The notes beneath the pieces are model-generated. The model worked only from the letters and a program-made list of their open reading frames with translations. It was not told the DNA's origin and did not search any database. The position numbers were made by a program, and so were the translations under genes. From contig NZ_RYFD01000004.1 in NCBI RefSeq assembly GCF_004138135.1, forward strand, positions 62,001-126,000: a DNA stretch of 64,000 bases, written 5' to 3'. This DNA comes from Candidatus Oscillochloris fontis (GTDB lineage: Bacteria; Chloroflexota; Chloroflexia; Chloroflexales; Chloroflexaceae). Below are positions 45,341 to 52,597 of the stretch, piece by piece (the first letter of the stretch is position 1; each line of letters starts with the position of its first letter).

Positions 45341-45413
45341 GTAGGGGCGAAGCATCGCCCACCAACCTCGTTCGGATTCCTCTACCACATGGTGGGCGAT
45401 GCTTCGCCCCTAC
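45341..45413. repeat. GTAGGGGCGAAGC palindromic repeat (copy 4, inverted loop)
   Basis: 45341-45363 pairs with 45391-45413, 23 bp perfect. The loop carries AACCTCGTTCGG, the reverse complement of the loop motif in copies 2 and 3, so this copy is in the opposite orientation. Confidence 0.92.
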
Positions 45414-45440: not shown

Positions 45441-45469
45441 TTGCGATAGGTATGCCAAAACACTATAAT
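45441..45469 (+). promoter_or_regulatory. Promoter of the kinase-phosphatase-PLD operon
   Basis: TTGCGA (45441-45446), 17 bases, TATAAT (45464-45469). It lies 87 bases before the ATG at 45556, and no other strong promoter is seen up to 52.5 kb. Confidence 0.72.
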
Positions 45470-45555
45470 AGAACCGCACAAGGTAGTGTTCATCACCCAA
45501 CCACCTAAATCGTTCTTTTTCGTCCCCCACCACTACGTTACGAGGAAGCCGCAGC

Positions 45556-47637
45556 ATGGGCCTGATTAAACGAGTCGGCACAAAGGGTCTTGGCACGCCA
45601 TCGGCAGATGATAGCACGCGCCAGATTCCCGCCGCAGAGAGTAGCGCACGCATCACCCCTCCCACTGAGGAGGAGAGCACGCGCCGTATCCAGGGCCAGC
45701 CGACGGATGAGGGCACCAAACAGATACCGGTTGCCCCGCCCCGCCCCGCTCCGCCTACCCCAGCGATGTCAGCGGCGGCCTCAATCGCTGATATTCATAT
45801 CCTCCCAACCGGGACGCTGCTGCAAGGGCGCTACCGCATCGAAGAACCCATCGGCGTGGGTGGGATGAGCGTGGTCTATCGGGGTCGCGATATGCGCTTT
45901 AAGGATGTGGTGCGCTATTGTGCCATCAAAGAGATGGCGCAGACAGCACCCGATTCGCATACCCGTGCCCTCAATCTGAAGAACTTTGAGCGTGAGGCAG
46001 GTCTGTTGGCGACCCTGCAACATCCTGCTATCCCCAAAGTCTACGATTTCTTTGAAGAGGATCACCGTCTCTACCTGGTACTCGAACTGGTGCCGGGGAA
46101 GGATCTCGAGGCGGTTCTGGAAGAAGTAGGCACCCCGATTAGCGAGGCGCGGGTTGTTACATGGGCCATCCAGATCTGTGATGTGCTTAGTTATCTGCAT
46201 AAACACACCCCCCAACCGATTGTCTTCCGCGATATGAAGCCCTCTAACGTCATGGTGGTGGGCGATGATCGAATCGTGCTGATTGACTTCGGCATTGCAC
46301 GTAACCTGAATCGGAGCGACCGTAAGGGGACAATGATTGGCACTGAGGGCTATTCGCCCCCCGAACAGTATCGTGGGGTGGCTGAACCCCAGGGTGATGT
46401 ATATGCCCTGGGGGCGACGCTGCACCACCTCCTTACCAATACTGATCCCCGCCTTGAAACCCCCTTCACCTTCCATGAGCGCCCGATCCGCCAGCTTAAC
46501 TCCGATGTCTCGGTTGATATGGAGATCATCGTCGTTAAGGCGCTCGAATATGACATGAATGCGCGTTGGGAGAGTGCCGATGCCATGAAGCAGGCGCTCT
46601 TGGCAACGATTAGTGGGGTTTCTGCCCCAGGGGCCACCGCTCTGCCTGCGGCTCCCGCTGTTGCCAAAGGTACCCCCCAGACAGAACTGGTCTGGAAGTT
46701 TGCCTGTGAAGATGAAATTCGCTCCTCCCCGGCAGTCAACAGCGGGATGCTCTTTGTGGGGTGTTATGATACAAACCTCTACGCGCTCGATGCGGTACGG
46801 GGTGAATTCCGTTGGAAGTATGCTACCGATGGTGGGATCAATTCATCACCAGCGGTGTGGCAGGATTATGTGATTGTTGGCTCGGAAGATGGTGCCCTCT
46901 ATGCCTGTGATATGCGGCGTGGCTCGTTGCGCTGGACATTCCGCACGGGTAAGCCGATCCGCTCCTCGCCGCGCATTGAAGATCGGGTGGTCTATATCGG
47001 TTCCGATGATCAACATATCTATGCCGTGGATGCTATCCGTGGGGTGCCGATCTGGAAGTATCGCACCTGGAACCCCATTCGCTCCTCGGCGGCCATTACC
47101 AGCCAGGTTATCTTCATTGGTGGCGATGATGGCCATGTCTACTGCCTCGATATACGCAATGGTGCGCTGAAGTGGAAGCAACGCACCCAGCAACCTGTGC
47201 GCTCCTCGCCCACCTTCCACGAAGGCTTGGTCTATGTGGGGTCGCTCGATCAGAGCCTCTATGCGCTTGATGCTGAGGGCGGCTGGCCGGCATGGCGCTT
47301 CCGTACCGGCCACTATATCAACTCCTCGCCCTGCGTCTTTGGATCGCGGGTCTTTGTGGGTGGCGTGGATGGCTTTATGTATGCGTTCGATGCTAAGAAT
47401 GGCCGCTTGGCATGGAAGTTTGAAGTTGGTAGCCAGATTACCTCCTCGCCCAGAGTGGAGAATGGACGGGCCTATTTTGGGGCGGTTGATGGCAATGTCT
47501 ACTGCCTGGACGCTGGAACGGGAACCTTGATTTGGAAGTATCTCACCGGTGCAGCGGTGGTCTCAACACCAGCGATTGCGGATGGGATTGTCTATGTGGG
47601 TAGCATGGATCATAACATCTATGCCCTGAAAGGCTAG
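45556..47637 (+). CDS. Ser/Thr protein kinase with eight-bladed PQQ-type beta-propeller
   Basis: 693 residues. A disordered N-terminus (1-85, Thr/Pro/Arg rich) precedes the kinase domain (about 88-355) with GVGGMSVVYRG, CAIKEM, FRDMKPSN and LIDFGIAR; the HRD motif is FRD, which keeps the catalytic Asp. From Trp380 to the end are eight blades of WKY...SSP...VGS.D..LYALD form, exactly 40 residues apart (the last is 34). No membrane helix, so the propeller is cytoplasmic. It is the first gene of a seven-gene operon; GAGGAAG lies before the ATG. Confidence 0.92.
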   Translation: MGLIKRVGTKGLGTPSADDSTRQIPAAESSARITPPTEEESTRRIQGQPTDEGTKQIPVAPPRPAPPTPAMSAAASIADIHILPTGTLLQGRYRIEEPIGVGGMSVVYRGRDMRFKDVVRYCAIKEMAQTAPDSHTRALNLKNFEREAGLLATLQHPAIPKVYDFFEEDHRLYLVLELVPGKDLEAVLEEVGTPISEARVVTWAIQICDVLSYLHKHTPQPIVFRDMKPSNVMVVGDDRIVLIDFGIARNLNRSDRKGTMIGTEGYSPPEQYRGVAEPQGDVYALGATLHHLLTNTDPRLETPFTFHERPIRQLNSDVSVDMEIIVVKALEYDMNARWESADAMKQALLATISGVSAPGATALPAAPAVAKGTPQTELVWKFACEDEIRSSPAVNSGMLFVGCYDTNLYALDAVRGEFRWKYATDGGINSSPAVWQDYVIVGSEDGALYACDMRRGSLRWTFRTGKPIRSSPRIEDRVVYIGSDDQHIYAVDAIRGVPIWKYRTWNPIRSSAAITSQVIFIGGDDGHVYCLDIRNGALKWKQRTQQPVRSSPTFHEGLVYVGSLDQSLYALDAEGGWPAWRFRTGHYINSSPCVFGSRVFVGGVDGFMYAFDAKNGRLAWKFEVGSQITSSPRVENGRAYFGAVDGNVYCLDAGTGTLIWKYLTGAAVVSTPAIADGIVYVGSMDHNIYALKG

Positions 47638-47639
47638 GT

Positions 47640-48836
47640 ATGGCGCATATACATCAGTCGCTCGATCAGGAGGCGGATGCCACAACAGATGAGGGGGCAC
47701 CGACTACACCACTATCTGAGGCCGAGCAGAAGACGAGTGAGGGTGCTACCGAAGCCGCCCCGACCACGGTGCCTGATGCTGCTGTTTGGTGGAATAGCTC
47801 CGCCACTGATGATACCCCGCTGCCTGCATCAATTCAGGCGACTCCGGTTCCGGCTGCTGAGGAGGATACTCCCACGGCACCGATGAGTCTGTTGGAGATC
47901 GAGCATGCCCGTCAGCGCCTTGCCACTATTGCCGCTCAGGTCGCAGCCGCAGAGGATGAACCAGCGATGGTCTCTGAGTTGGCTACCGAACCGATTGATG
48001 CGACCCATCAACTCGATATAAACCAGGCTCCCGCCCTGATTGCCCGCCGCTCTCGCCAGGGTCTCGCTGCAATGGCGGTGCGTGATGTTGGGCGTGTGCG
48101 TGAGATGAACCAGGATAACGTCTTTGCGATGATCACCACCCTCCCCCGCGATGGGACGGATCTTACGGTGGGGCTCTTCATTGTTGCCGATGGAATGGGT
48201 GGGCATCAGGGGGGCGAACTGGCGAGTCGCCTCGCCGTGCGCACCGTCGTGCATCAGGTCTTGAGCCAACTGGTGCTACCCGCCCTCGATGACAACATGA
48301 ATGCCGCCCTCCAACCGCTCATGATCTCGGCGGTACAGGTGGCGAACCAGACGATCTGGGAGGCGGCGCAGAGTTTGGGTACCGATATGGGTACCACCTG
48401 TACCGCCGCGCTGCTGGTCGGGCACGCGCTCTACCTCGCCCATGTCGGCGATTCGCGGGCCTATCTCTTTGAACCGGGTGGCTTGCGTCAACTCACGAGC
48501 GATCATTCGACGGTTGGGCGGCTGATTCAACTCGGCCAGCTCGATCCCTCAGAAGCGCGTGAGCATCCGTTACGCAACCAACTCTATCGTACCATTGGCC
48601 AACAACCTCAAGTCATGGTTGATTTTATCTACCAGCCGATAGGCGTCAGTTCTCATCTGTTGCTCTGTAGCGATGGTTTGTGGGGCTTGATTGATACTCC
48701 GATGTTGGAACAGGCACTGAAGCGCAGCCCTTGGCCACAGGATACCTGTAATGAGTTAATAGCTCTGGCCAATCTGGCTGGTGGCGAGGATAATATCTCA
48801 GCCGTGGTTGTCTCACTCCCACTGGCGGAAAGGTGA
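47640..48836 (+). CDS. PP2C-type protein phosphatase with disordered N-terminal extension
   Basis: 398 residues. The first 140 are acidic, Thr/Pro-rich and probably disordered. The PP2C domain follows with RDVGRVREMNQDN, VADGMGGHQGGE, TTCTAALL, HVGDSRAYL, SDHST, LLCSDGLWG and GGEDNISAVVV, so all metal-binding Asp positions are kept. It should reverse the action of the kinase encoded upstream, whose stop lies two bases before this ATG. The pair is typical of PknB/Stp-like regulation. Confidence 0.93.
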   Translation: MAHIHQSLDQEADATTDEGAPTTPLSEAEQKTSEGATEAAPTTVPDAAVWWNSSATDDTPLPASIQATPVPAAEEDTPTAPMSLLEIEHARQRLATIAAQVAAAEDEPAMVSELATEPIDATHQLDINQAPALIARRSRQGLAAMAVRDVGRVREMNQDNVFAMITTLPRDGTDLTVGLFIVADGMGGHQGGELASRLAVRTVVHQVLSQLVLPALDDNMNAALQPLMISAVQVANQTIWEAAQSLGTDMGTTCTAALLVGHALYLAHVGDSRAYLFEPGGLRQLTSDHSTVGRLIQLGQLDPSEAREHPLRNQLYRTIGQQPQVMVDFIYQPIGVSSHLLLCSDGLWGLIDTPMLEQALKRSPWPQDTCNELIALANLAGGEDNISAVVVSLPLAER

Positions 48837-48840
48837 TCTC

Positions 48841-50112
48841 ATGGCACCAGGCATCCAACTCCGCTCAACGCTGAGCCGTAGCCTGCTTCCCGATGTTAGC
48901 GAGGAGCAGTTGGTCTATGTGCTGGTCGAAGTGAGTGCCCATGGGGTGCCTACCAGCATCTCGAAGCTGCCCCTCAACCTCTGTCTGGTAATTGATCGTA
49001 GCTCCTCAATGCGTGGTGAGCGCCTTCAGCAGGTGAAGGATGCTGCCTACCGCATTGTGGATATGCTCACCGATGATGACTATCTCTCCCTCGTCACGTT
49101 TAATGATCGTGCTGAGGTAGTCATTCCTTCCCAGCGCCCGCAGAGTCGCGCCGATCTCAAGCGTATGATTGCTGGTATCGAGGCTGCTGGTGGTACCGAG
49201 ATGGCCACCGGTATGGCGCTAGGAATTCAAGAGACGCAACGCGCCCTGACTGGGCGTGGGGTGAGCCGGATTCTCTTGCTCACCGATGGACGTACCTATG
49301 GTGATGAAGGGCGTTGTGTCGAGATTGCACGCCGCGCTCAGGCACGTGGGGTGGGGCTAACCGCATTGGGCATCGGTAGTGAGTGGAATGAAGATCTGCT
49401 TGAGACGATGTCGGCCCGCGAAAATAGCCGTACTCAGTACATCACCTCAGCGGCTGAAATTACCCAACTCTTCACCGATGAGGTCAAGCGGATGCACTCC
49501 GTCTTTGCGCAGGGGCTCCAACTGCGCGCCGAGGTGCGTCCTGGTGGCCTGCTACGCTCGCTGGATCGTGTGCGCCCCTTTATTGCCGCGATCCCGGTTG
49601 TTGAAGAGAAGGATCTGCTCTGGACGGCGAGTCTGGGTGATTGGCCAGGAACCGATCCGCAAGCCTTTCTGCTTGAGGTGGTGGTGCCGCCCCTCCCCGC
49701 AGGCGATCATCCTCTGGTACGCTTGACATTGCGCTATAGCCTGCCAGGTGCCAACCTGATGAACCAAGAGGGCAATCTGGTGTTGCGCATCGGTGTTCGC
49801 CCTAGTGCTACGGTTGGGTATGAGGTTGATGCGACGGTGCGCCACTGGTTGGAGCGTCTGGTGGCGTATCGCCTCCAAGCCGGGGCGTGGCAGGATGTCG
49901 AAGAGGGCCGTATCGAAGAGGCCACTCGCCGCCTCCAGATGGCCGGTACCCGCCTCTTTGAGGCCGGGCAGGTTGATCTCGCCCGTACCGTACAGGAAGA
50001 GGCTACCCGCCTCAGTCGCTCTGGGCAGACCAGTGCTGAGGGCCGCAAGCGAATCAAGTATGGAACCCGTGGCCTGATGAAGGGTGAGGGGATGCAGGAG
50101 CGCGAAGTCTAA
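48841..50112 (+). CDS. von Willebrand factor A domain protein
   Basis: 423 residues from the ATG at 48841 (AAAGGTGA six bases upstream), four bases after the phosphatase stop. The vWA domain (about 40-215) has an intact MIDAS (DRSSSM, then GGTEM and LLTDGRT), so it binds metal and probably a partner. A beta-rich region (about 220-330) and a helical, Arg/Glu-rich tail follow. No signal peptide. In this setting it is likely a phosphorylation-controlled adaptor. TerY-type proteins have a similar vWA domain, but overall identity cannot be judged here. Confidence 0.88.
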   Translation: MAPGIQLRSTLSRSLLPDVSEEQLVYVLVEVSAHGVPTSISKLPLNLCLVIDRSSSMRGERLQQVKDAAYRIVDMLTDDDYLSLVTFNDRAEVVIPSQRPQSRADLKRMIAGIEAAGGTEMATGMALGIQETQRALTGRGVSRILLLTDGRTYGDEGRCVEIARRAQARGVGLTALGIGSEWNEDLLETMSARENSRTQYITSAAEITQLFTDEVKRMHSVFAQGLQLRAEVRPGGLLRSLDRVRPFIAAIPVVEEKDLLWTASLGDWPGTDPQAFLLEVVVPPLPAGDHPLVRLTLRYSLPGANLMNQEGNLVLRIGVRPSATVGYEVDATVRHWLERLVAYRLQAGAWQDVEEGRIEEATRRLQMAGTRLFEAGQVDLARTVQEEATRLSRSGQTSAEGRKRIKYGTRGLMKGEGMQEREV

Positions 50113-50129
50113 GCTGTGAGGGGGAGGCG

Positions 50130-50645
50130 ATGATACGCTGCCGTAACTGTCATGCTAATCAGATGAATGGGGCGATCTTTTGTTCGGAATGCGGCGAATC
50201 GCTCTTGAATGTGCGTCCCAATCGCGAAACGACCAACTCACTGAATCAGCAGAGTAACGATGTACCGATGGTGGTCGAAGATGAACCCGAATCGGTTACC
50301 CCCGCTCCACCCTTAGCCCTCAATACGATTAGCCTGGTGGTGATCAATAGCGGGCGACGGATCAATCTTGAAGCGGGCGAAGAGTTGTTGGTGGGGCGCA
50401 AAGATAACCAGCGCGGGATCTTCCCCGATGTTGATCTGGGTCTTGATGGTGGCTATGATGCGGGTGTCTCACGGCGTCATGCGATCATTACCCCTGATCA
50501 CGGAATCTATTTGTTGGAGGATCTTTCGAGTGCCAATGGCACCTTTATTAATGGGCGACGGGTGGAACCCCAAACGCCGTCCCCGATTCAGCATGGTGAT
50601 GAGTTGCGCTTTGGAACGCTCATCCTGCGCTTTGAACTGAATTGA
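50130..50645 (+). CDS. Zinc-ribbon / FHA domain protein
   Basis: 171 residues. The N-terminal zinc ribbon has CRNC and CSEC (two CxxC pairs, residues 4-22). After a Pro/Glu linker, the FHA domain (about 75-171) has LLVGRKD, GVSRRHA, DLSSANGTFING and HGDELRFG, the complete phosphothreonine-binding set. It should read the Thr phosphorylation made by the operon's kinase, perhaps on the Thr-rich N-termini of the kinase and phosphatase. GGGGGAGG precedes the ATG. Confidence 0.92.
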   Translation: MIRCRNCHANQMNGAIFCSECGESLLNVRPNRETTNSLNQQSNDVPMVVEDEPESVTPAPPLALNTISLVVINSGRRINLEAGEELLVGRKDNQRGIFPDVDLGLDGGYDAGVSRRHAIITPDHGIYLLEDLSSANGTFINGRRVEPQTPSPIQHGDELRFGTLILRFELN

Positions 50646-50665
50646 TCTAGATTAAGGAGTTATGT

Positions 50666-50911
50666 GTGGCGAAGACCGTTATTCTCCACTTGAGTGGTGA
50701 AGACCCCGTGTTGGCTGAAATTGATCAGGAACCGCAGGCGAGCGATCAGTTTCTCAAAGTGACCAACATGCGTAAGCGTGACGGAAAGCCGGTGAGTTAC
50801 CTCGCGGCTGGTGTGCAGTCGGTGATCTATCCATGGCATCGCATCACCTTTTTGGAGCTTATGCCCAGTGATGAGGAGCGCAGTCAGGTGGTTGATTTCT
50901 TCCGTACTTAG
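50666..50911 (+). CDS. Small conserved-looking protein in the kinase operon
   Basis: 81 residues starting with GTG at 50666 (AAGGAG eight bases upstream). It looks like a compact beta-rich domain: KTVILHLSGEDPVLAEID, then LKVTNMRKRDGKPVSYL and WHRITFLELMPSD. No known motif. It is 20 bases after the FHA gene and 15 before the next, so it is part of the operon. Confidence 0.75.
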   Translation: MAKTVILHLSGEDPVLAEIDQEPQASDQFLKVTNMRKRDGKPVSYLAAGVQSVIYPWHRITFLELMPSDEERSQVVDFFRT

Positions 50912-50926
50912 GCAAGGAATGGCGCT

Positions 50927-51379
50927 ATGCCCGACACCGAGAATCTCACCCCGCGCCAGTTGTTGGCCGCCGAACGTATTCAGGAGGATGAGGGCTTTGC
51001 TGGAGGCTTGGAGGATGCTGCGGCGGTGCGGTTGATCCGCTGGGCGGGTGAGGTGGCGGTGCAAGCTGCTGTTCCTGAGGTGAGTGATGATCTGCTTGAT
51101 GCGACGCTCAGTGCATTGCGTCAGGCTGCCCGTCAAGCGGCGCGCCAAACCTACACTGGCCAGGATGTGCTTGTCTTGGCCCAGGCTGCATTTGCCAAAC
51201 TAGCCCCGGCACTCCCCACCGCCCCGCCCACAAGCGCACCCACGCTGAGCAAGCCGACGGAAATTGAGTCTCCGCCCCCTGCACCTCCTTCCTCCCCAAC
51301 GCAGGCTCCCCAGCGTCTGCGCGTCTCCTTACGGGTGCGTCAGATCTCACTGACAACCCACCGGGTCTATTTGAGATAG
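50927..51379 (+). CDS. Helical, Ala/Pro-rich protein of unknown function
   Basis: 150 residues. The first 95 are helical (TPRQLLAAERIQEDEGFAGG, ALRQAARQAARQ), followed by a Pro/Ser/Thr-rich tail (about 97-130) and a basic end (RLRVSLRVRQ). The tail could be a phosphoacceptor for the operon's kinase, but this is a guess. AAGGAATG precedes the ATG; the next gene starts 11 bases after its stop. Confidence 0.7.
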   Translation: MPDTENLTPRQLLAAERIQEDEGFAGGLEDAAAVRLIRWAGEVAVQAAVPEVSDDLLDATLSALRQAARQAARQTYTGQDVLVLAQAAFAKLAPALPTAPPTSAPTLSKPTEIESPPPAPPSSPTQAPQRLRVSLRVRQISLTTHRVYLR

Positions 51380-51390
51380 GCAAAGGTACT

Positions 51391-52533
51391 ATGTCCACTC
51401 GTCGCGCACAGTCACGTCCGCAGCAAAGTACCAGCAAAACTATTCTGAGTGCGCTGATCGTTGCCATCATTCTGGGTATTGGCTATTTCCTTCAGCAGGG
51501 GTTCTTTGGGTTGGAGTCATCTGCTCCACCGGCGGCTTCTGTTGATGGCAGCGAAGCCATCCAGGTCTTTTTTACCACCCCCAGCCTCGTCTACCCGGAT
51601 GTGCCCAAGAATCGTATTCCTCCGCCCCATGAACAGGCGATCATTGCTGATATTGATGCGGCTACTCGTAGCATTGATATGGTGACCTTTGAGTACAATC
51701 TGAGTAGTATTGCGCATGCACTGGCGCGAGCTACGCAGCGTGGGGTGGATGTTCGGCTGGCGCTGGATCAGGAAGAGTTGGAAGATCCGGTTATGGCGAA
51801 GTGGGCCGGTGTGGTCGAGGATGCGCAGATCTCGATCAGTTGGCAGGAGAGCGATGCCTTTCTGCATAGCAAGTTCATCATTATTGATGCGCAGGTGTTG
51901 TGGACAGGTTCATGGAATGCGACGATCAACGATACGTACCGTAACAACAATAACTTGTTGCGGATCACCATCCCCGAATTGATTGACAACTACCAGACCG
52001 AGTTTGAGCAGATGATGGCGGGGCGTTTCAGTACTAGTAAACAGAAATCCACTCCAAACCCAGAGATTCGCTTTGGCACTGGCCAGATCGAGAACTACTT
52101 CTCGCCCAAGGAGAAACCGCGCCAGCGCATTGTCGAGTATCTCAGCCAGGCCCGCGAGCAGATTGATTTTCTGGCCTTCTCCTACACCAGCGACGAGATC
52201 GCGCAGGCGATGATCGAACGCCACAATGCCGGTGTGGCCGTGCGTGGGGTCTTCGAGAAGCGTAATGCCCAGGGGTTGGGCAGTGAATACCAGACCTTGC
52301 TCGATGCCGGGGTTGATGTGCTGAACGACGGTAACTGCTACACCATGCACCACAAGGTGATCATTATTGATCGCCGAGTGGTGATCACTGGATCATACAA
52401 CTTTACCGCCCGTGCCGAGGATCTGAATGATGAGAACCTGCTGATCATTGATGACCCGGAGCTTGCCGAATGGTATATGCAGGAGTTTGAGCGCGTCTTT
52501 GGGCAGGCGCAACGCCCAACCCAGTGTGGGTGA
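51391..52533 (+). CDS. Membrane-anchored phospholipase D-like protein (two HKD motifs)
   Basis: 380 residues. One N-terminal membrane helix (about 18-38) is followed by two PLD half-domains: HSKFIIID (His159, Lys161, Asp166) and HHKVIIID (His320, Lys322, Asp327). Both HxKx4D motifs are complete, so it should be a phosphodiesterase. Such proteins cut nucleic acids or phospholipids, and this one would face outside the cytoplasm if the helix is a signal anchor. It is the last gene of the kinase operon and is followed by a 24-bp palindrome. Confidence 0.9.
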   Translation: MSTRRAQSRPQQSTSKTILSALIVAIILGIGYFLQQGFFGLESSAPPAASVDGSEAIQVFFTTPSLVYPDVPKNRIPPPHEQAIIADIDAATRSIDMVTFEYNLSSIAHALARATQRGVDVRLALDQEELEDPVMAKWAGVVEDAQISISWQESDAFLHSKFIIIDAQVLWTGSWNATINDTYRNNNNLLRITIPELIDNYQTEFEQMMAGRFSTSKQKSTPNPEIRFGTGQIENYFSPKEKPRQRIVEYLSQAREQIDFLAFSYTSDEIAQAMIERHNAGVAVRGVFEKRNAQGLGSEYQTLLDAGVDVLNDGNCYTMHHKVIIIDRRVVITGSYNFTARAEDLNDENLLIIDDPELAEWYMQEFERVFGQAQRPTQCG

Positions 52534-52547
52534 GACAGCATTGTGAC

Positions 52548-52597
52548 CCTCACCCCCAGCCGCTCTCCCGCACGCGGGAGAGCGGCTGGGGGTGAGG
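52548..52597. terminator. 24-bp perfect palindrome closing the kinase operon
   Basis: 52548-52571 pairs with 52574-52597 around a 2-base loop. Arms contain CTCACCCCCAGCCGCTCTCC, a sequence common in intergenic palindromes of many bacteria. It lies between convergent stops. Confidence 0.88.

What the first reader, a model, noticed from the sequence alone, without database searches (positions are those of the whole stretch)
45441..52597. Seven-gene operon: PQQ kinase, PP2C, vWA, zinc-ribbon/FHA, two unknowns, PLD
One promoter, short gaps and one terminator enclose a full write/erase/read phospho-Thr set (kinase, PP2C, FHA), a MIDAS-bearing vWA protein, and a membrane-anchored PLD with two intact HKD motifs. 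Kinase/PP2C/vWA sets are known as TerY-P triads in conflict or stress systems. The PLD end product and the two unknown proteins are not part of that description as I know it. An Mrr-like nuclease and an XRE gene lie next door. Inference: a phospho-switch that arms a PLD effector, for defence or envelope stress.
Basis: partly seen in the sequence, partly recalled or inferred. Interest (0 to 1): 0.8.

Follow-up and report, generated by a model that had tools for sequence, protein, structure and literature searches.

The report
Chloroflexota phospho-threonine switch with Sm-like protein
A five-gene protein-phosphorylation switch, inherited across the bacterial phylum Chloroflexota and carrying an undescribed small protein with a predicted RNA-binding-type (Sm-like) fold, lies here beside an unrelated nuclease-like gene pair that moved in by rearrangement, so the proposed kinase-armed phospholipase D weapon is not supported.

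Summary
The seven genes, their gaps and catalytic motifs are real, but they are two units joined only in this genome.

Unit 1 (45556-50911) is kinase-PP2C-vWA-ZnRibbon/FHA-P5. Its gene order is kept across Chloroflexota (Chloroflexales, Herpetosiphon, Anaerolineae, Thermoflexus) and tracks taxonomy, so it looks housekeeping rather than mobile defence. The 81-aa P5 is single-copy in 96/158 Chloroflexia genomes, absent from Pfam, PHROGs, plasmids and phages, and modelled with an Sm/LSm-like fold.

Unit 2 (50927-52533), P6 plus a membrane-anchored PLD, is a separate pair at another locus in relatives; here it has left its usual site downstream of pyrRBC. The PLD-effector reading is not supported.

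Best mechanism (inferred): a phospho-threonine scaffold switch. The vWA C-terminus carries a near-invariant GTRxL motif (Thr 88/88). Kinase N-tails carry T[RKQHN]x[ILMV] repeats (143 found, 15 expected) where FHA is present, and not where it is missing (1 found, 1.8 expected). These look like FHA docking sites written by the kinase and erased by PP2C.

vWA and ZnR-FHA resemble archaeal ArnB-ArnA; the kinase's beta-propeller end fails the TerY-P definition. The cellular output is unknown; RodA/RodZ neighbours in Herpetosiphon suggest growth or envelope control.

The parts
45344..45410 (.). inverted pair of a dispersed palindromic repeat (GGGGCGAAGCATCGCCCACC) just upstream of the promoter; 14 matches in the window
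45441..45469 (+). candidate sigma-70-like promoter TTGCGA-17-TATAAT of the kinase gene
   Evidence: 10/12 matches; consensus match only
45556..47637 (+). K: Ser/Thr kinase (aa 93-346) with C-terminal PQQ-type beta-propeller; N-tail with four T[RK]x[IL] motifs (Thr 9, 21, 42, 54); no predicted membrane segment
47640..48836 (+). PP2C phosphatase with long N-terminal tail (THQL at aa 122)
48841..50112 (+). vWA protein (MIDAS intact), ArnB-like architecture (matches PDB 4FX5 over residues 33-386)
50062..50076 (+). GTRGL motif in the vWA C-tail (aa 408-412); Thr invariant in 88 of 88 relatives: predicted FHA docking site
50130..50645 (+). ZnR-FHA: N-terminal CxxC-x10-CxxC ribbon plus FHA domain (ArnA-like)
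50666..50911 (+). P5: 81-aa conserved protein (GTG start), predicted Sm/LSm-like fold, conserved C-terminal FFR
50927..51379 (+). P6: helical-looking N-terminal domain, Pro-rich linker, basic C-terminus; partner of PLD, not part of the kinase module
51391..52533 (+). PLD: N-terminal membrane anchor (aa 17-35) plus two HKD motifs (aa 159, 320); not part of the kinase module
52548..52597 (.). perfect 22-bp inverted repeat after PLD, no T-run

Best explanation
The real unit is a cytosolic phospho-threonine scaffold switch, kinase-PP2C-vWA-ZnR/FHA-P5. The kinase, perhaps sensing through its beta-propeller, autophosphorylates Thr in its N-terminal T[RK]x[ILM] repeats and phosphorylates the invariant Thr of the vWA C-terminal GTRxL tail. 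The FHA domain of the zinc-ribbon protein docks on these pThr-x-x-Leu/Ile sites, pulling kinase, vWA (MIDAS) protein and adaptor into one complex, and PP2C dissolves it. P5, a small Sm-like barrel, is the fifth subunit and keeps company with the kinase even where the other three are gone. Shown: gene order, taxonomic inheritance, intact active sites, motif enrichment and its match to FHA presence, predicted Sm-like fold. Inferred: phosphorylation of these Thr, FHA docking, complex formation, P5's ligand, and the output (probably growth or envelope homeostasis, not defence). The adjacent P6-PLD pair is a recent neighbour, not the effector.
For: Order kept across the phylum; P5 in 131/400 sampled Chloroflexota genomes; taxon-congruent kinase tree, 18 label changes against a shuffled mean of 50.5. 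vWA tail GTRxL: T 88/88, R 87/88, L 87/88. Kinase tails in FHA-bearing loci: 143 motifs against 15 expected, 58/72 tails with at least one; FHA-less loci: 1 against 1.8. PP2C tails 64 against 16; control, FHA linker, 23 against 19. Active-site, MIDAS and FHA residues conserved. vWA and FHA match archaeal ArnB and ArnA (PDB 8S05, 5A8I), where FHA binding to a phosphorylated vWA protein has been shown (PMC12852372). P5 models: LSm/Sm proteins head the Foldseek lists. RodA upstream and RodZ downstream in Herpetosiphon-type loci. P6-PLD apart in relatives, moved from the pyrRBC site here.
Against: No phosphosite, binding or expression data. Motif counts come from related sequences, so they are not independent, and the motif definition was settled after looking at the tails. 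Class-level loci with FHA L040-L043, L050 and L066 (families f5, f8) lack the strict T[RKQHN]x[ILMV] form in the kinase tail; most have looser TTSL or TSQL. The Sm-like fold is a prediction with Foldseek E about 0.03-0.05 and VIA Z about 7-8, a level that can be common arrangement; no sequence link to LSm. RodA/RodZ adjacency is essentially confined to two families, so the output is weakly supported.
Confidence: 0.6

Rival explanations
1. One reading: a seven-gene phospho-switch that arms the PLD effector for defence or envelope stress.
For: Co-directional genes with gaps of 11-20 bp here, so co-transcription in this strain is plausible; PLD HMM resemblance to DrmC below the NCBIfam cut-off; Mrr-domain gene next door.
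Against: P6-PLD is at another locus in relatives and PLD persists in g34 genomes without vWA or P5; PLD has the only predicted membrane anchor; Mrr/XRE not seen beside P5 elsewhere; no mobile-element copies of P5 found.
Confidence: 0.05
2. The five-gene module is a TerY-P-type conflict or stress triad.
For: Kinase + PP2C + MIDAS vWA set; PADLOC kinase models PD-T4-6 and MADS6 match the kinase domain.
Against: TerY-P kinases carry a C-terminal zinc ribbon or OB fold (PMC11090510); here it is a propeller and the ribbon sits on the FHA protein. vWA matches the ArnB-type three-domain 4FX5 over most of its length. Taxon-congruent inheritance, and no restriction genes among the recurrent neighbours that were identified in relatives.
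Confidence: 0.1
3. Nucleic-acid-centred switch: P5 is an RNA- or DNA-binding Sm-like protein whose binding is controlled by the kinase module, a phospho-regulated Hfq-like factor.
For: Sm/LSm-like models for two divergent branches of the family; conserved basic R36, K41 and R59; no Hfq found in 82 Chloroflexales genomes while control genomes are positive; P5-like gene beside topA, in several loci with dprA, in family f33.
Against: No Pfam LSM or Hfq match and no canonical Sm motif by eye; small SH3-like barrels often bind proteins; conserved C-terminal FFR suggests a protein interface.
Confidence: 0.25

Closest known systems
ArnA-ArnB-ArnC/D-PP2A system of Sulfolobales (PMC6509490, PMC12852372)
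   Same: Zinc-finger plus FHA adaptor (ArnA) and a three-domain MIDAS vWA protein (ArnB) under Ser/Thr kinases and a phosphatase; FHA binds pThr in the vWA protein's C-terminal region; window vWA and FHA match PDB 8S05/5A8I.
   Different: Bacterial; phosphatase is PP2C, not PP2A; kinase carries a PQQ-type propeller, not an OB/TPR region; docking sites predicted in a terminal GTRxL tail and in the kinase's own tail; additional Sm-like P5; no archaellum.
TerY-P triad (PMC11090510)
   Same: vWA + PP2C + Ser/Thr kinase.
   Different: Kinase lacks a C-terminal zinc ribbon/OB fold; separate ZnR-FHA and P5 genes; taxon-congruent distribution.
T6SS threonine phosphorylation pathway PpkA-PppA-Fha (PMC3224232)
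   Same: Kinase, PP2C and FHA reader; PpkA carries a vWA domain.
   Different: In PpkA the vWA is described as an extracellular sensor domain on a transmembrane kinase; here all five proteins lack predicted membrane segments and no T6SS gene was seen among the neighbours identified.
AfsK (Streptomyces kinase that phosphorylates DivIVA, PMC13432765)
   Same: Kinase + PQQ-type propeller; NCBIfam AfsK matches at 253 bits.
   Different: Far below the AfsK cut-off of 1300 bits; AfsK is not known to me to lie in a PP2C-vWA-FHA cluster.
Sm/LSm/Hfq proteins
   Same: Predicted fold of P5.
   Different: No sequence match; no evidence of ring formation or RNA binding.

Membership tests
TerY-P triad | Ser/Thr kinase fused at its C-terminus to a zinc ribbon (or OB fold) | tested here: not met
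   C-terminal half is a PQQ beta-propeller; definition from PMC11090510
TerY-P triad | PP2C phosphatase gene in the set | tested here: met
TerY-P triad | TerY-like vWA domain | tested here: inconclusive
   vWA with intact MIDAS; best near-full-length solved match is ArnB-type 4FX5; no TerY profile was compared directly
ArnA-ArnB module | Adaptor with N-terminal zinc finger and C-terminal FHA | tested here: met
   Cys conserved in 95 of 95-97, key FHA residues in 99-102 of 102; matches 5A8I and 8S05_C
ArnA-ArnB module | vWA protein with vWA + beta-sandwich + C-terminal helical bundle | tested here: inconclusive
   8S05_A matched over the vWA domain only, 4FX5 (same three-domain plan, PMC6509490) over residues 33-386; no model of the window protein was made
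ArnA-ArnB module | Phosphorylation-dependent FHA binding to the vWA C-terminal region | not testable with these tools
   only motif conservation, GTRxL T 88/88
Sm/LSm/Hfq family | Sm fold | tested here: inconclusive
   predicted models only: best Foldseek E 0.03-0.04, VIA Z 7-8
Sm/LSm/Hfq family | match to Pfam LSM or Hfq profile | tested here: not met
   no such match in 43 members at E 1
DISARM (DrmC) | DrmC equivalog score | tested here: not met
   75.5 bits against a cut-off of 133
AfsK | NCBIfam AfsK equivalog score | tested here: not met
   252.9 bits against a cut-off of 1300

The most novel reading that the evidence does not exclude
P5 founds a new Chloroflexota family of Sm-like nucleic-acid-binding proteins controlled by a phospho-threonine scaffold, a kinase-gated Hfq-like regulator in bacteria where no Hfq was found, with the shared GT[RK]xL tails as the switch code.
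Probability: 0.22. Interest if true: 0.85.

Novelty: new variant of a known kind. Interest (0 to 1): 0.6.

Why it matters
A signalling module kept in order across much of a phylum, with an undescribed small subunit that outlives the other partners beside the kinase, points to an uncharacterised regulatory system. The near-invariant GTRxL tail gives a concrete, cheap phosphopeptide test of who talks to whom. The likeness to archaeal ArnAB suggests that vWA plus ZnR-FHA phospho-scaffolds are a shared prokaryotic device, and P5 offers a possible link between Ser/Thr phosphorylation and RNA or DNA. It also corrects a tempting misreading: the nuclease-like PLD next door is a chance neighbour.

Tried and rejected
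PLD as end product: rejected by locus comparison. Mrr/XRE as module parts: not found beside P5 elsewhere. Mobile origin: no P5 in plasmids, phages or viral contigs. Sequence family for P5: none in Pfam, NCBIfam, PADLOC, PHROGs or PDB sequences. Rfam on the window: no match. P6: no family found; neighbours of P6-PLD (pyrBC, oligopeptide ABC transporter, BacA, glycosyltransferase, 7TM-HD) are not coherent enough to assign a function. Literature searches for this gene set in Chloroflexota found no description, but the library is open-access only. Contig ends and draft assemblies make some absences uncertain.

Full report
Observation. Seven co-directional genes fill 45556-52533 with gaps of 2-20 bp. 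Pfam identifies kinase + PQQ propeller, PP2C, vWA, FHA and PLD; the 81-aa P5 and 150-aa P6 match nothing. The promoter candidate is a consensus match only. The 'terminator' is a perfect inverted repeat without a T-run.

Two units, not one. P5 is found in 96 of 158 Chloroflexia genomes, one copy in all but a case split over two contigs. In nearly all loci compared around it in Chloroflexales, Herpetosiphon, Anaerolineae and Thermoflexus the order kinase-PP2C-vWA-FHA-P5 recurs; Ardenticatena has it without a recognised PP2C. Exceptions: Thermomicrobia-type families keep only kinase-P5 at the locus, and no vWA relative at E 1e-30 was found in any genome of those families. Family f23 has FHA-P5, and f33 has a P5-like gene beside topA, in several loci with dprA; the A1 and A3 profiles match at 99.6% probability. 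P6 was found at the P5 locus in none of 60 loci; P6 and PLD form a pair elsewhere in Chloroflexales. In several Chloroflexaceae the pair follows pyrR-pyrB-pyrC, with or without an oligopeptide transporter between; in the window genome that stretch does not hold it as far as it was read, and the genome has only the one PLD copy beside P5. So the pair relocated beside P5 in this lineage. Genus g34, with mostly about 3-Mb genomes, keeps PLD but returned neither P5 nor vWA.

Inheritance. A kinase tree of 77 rows groups by family, 18 label changes against a shuffled mean of 50.5 (quick method, SH-aLRT support only). No P5 relative was found on plasmids, phages or viral contigs. This is the pattern of a core gene set, not a mobile defence cassette.

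Mechanism. Kinase Lys, RD and DFG, PP2C metal, vWA MIDAS, zinc-ribbon Cys and FHA pThr-binding residues are invariant or nearly so in about 80-100 relatives. The kinase N-tails carry repeats such as DDSTRQIP and EEGTRQI: in 72 FHA-bearing loci 143 T[RKQHN]x[ILMV] motifs against 15 expected from shuffling (max 26); in 16 FHA-less loci 1 against 1.8. PP2C tails show 64 against 16. The vWA C-tail reads GRKRIKYGTRGL, with Thr 88/88, Arg 87/88, Leu 87/88; the FHA protein's own linker, a control, shows no enrichment. A Thr with Leu/Ile at +3 fits the FHA ligand rule (pThr-x-x-Ile/Leu, general knowledge). vWA paralogues elsewhere in the same genomes, several in other kinase or PP2C clusters, end with YATRRL or KTVRL. 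Inference: kinase writes, FHA reads, PP2C erases, at the kinase's own tail and the vWA tail.

P5. AlphaFold models of two branches (pLDDT 87 and 82) give Sm/LSm proteins at the top of Foldseek lists, and VIA Z of 7-8 to Sm/LSm-like chains, a level the tool warns may be common arrangement. Invariant residues H8, P23, D39, P56, E64, R80, and a C-terminal FFR that is invariant or nearly so and lies in a low-confidence tail, suggest a partner interface. No Hfq was found in 82 Chloroflexales genomes although five control genomes are positive. Nucleic-acid binding is a guess.

Known relatives. vWA and FHA match the archaeal ArnB-ArnA complex, PDB 8S05, and ArnA 5A8I, and the vWA matches 4FX5 over most of its length; the shared three-domain plan of 4FX5 and the ArnB homologue is described in PMC6509490. 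In ArnAB, kinase ArnC phosphorylates the vWA protein's C-terminal bundle and the FHA domain binds it tightly (PMC12852372). TerY-P membership fails on the kinase C-terminus. PpkA-PppA-Fha shares parts.

Output. In Herpetosiphon-type families (f2, f3) RodA lies directly upstream; in f2 RodZ and YajQ lie downstream. With AfsK's role in polar growth this leans to growth or envelope control, weakly.

Noticed in passing
window 45344-45410 and 12 further places: Dispersed palindromic repeat GGGGCGAAGCATCGCCCACC, 14 matches in 64 kb (0.02 expected), mostly in inverted pairs; MITE/REP-like.
   Followed up: no
L188, L190-L197, L199 (family f33): P5-like protein beside topA, in several loci with dprA, with an added conserved C-tail ELEIDEDFLRRIRE.
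   Followed up: partly
L232, L234 (G064, G006): A second cluster PP2C-PP2C-kinase-vWA-FHA, paralogous to the window module, without P5; vWA tail YATRRL.
   Followed up: partly
L072/L108 and G034:C57: In one Oscillochloris relative P5 lies on a different contig from the vWA gene, so the module is split or the assembly is.
   Followed up: no
window 50927-52533; L208-L227: P6-PLD: conserved two-gene pair of Chloroflexales, anchored two-HKD protein plus small helical-looking partner, function unknown.
   Followed up: partly
genus g34 (G071-G081): Chloroflexales genomes, most about 3 Mb, in which neither P5 nor the vWA gene is found although PLD remains.
   Followed up: no
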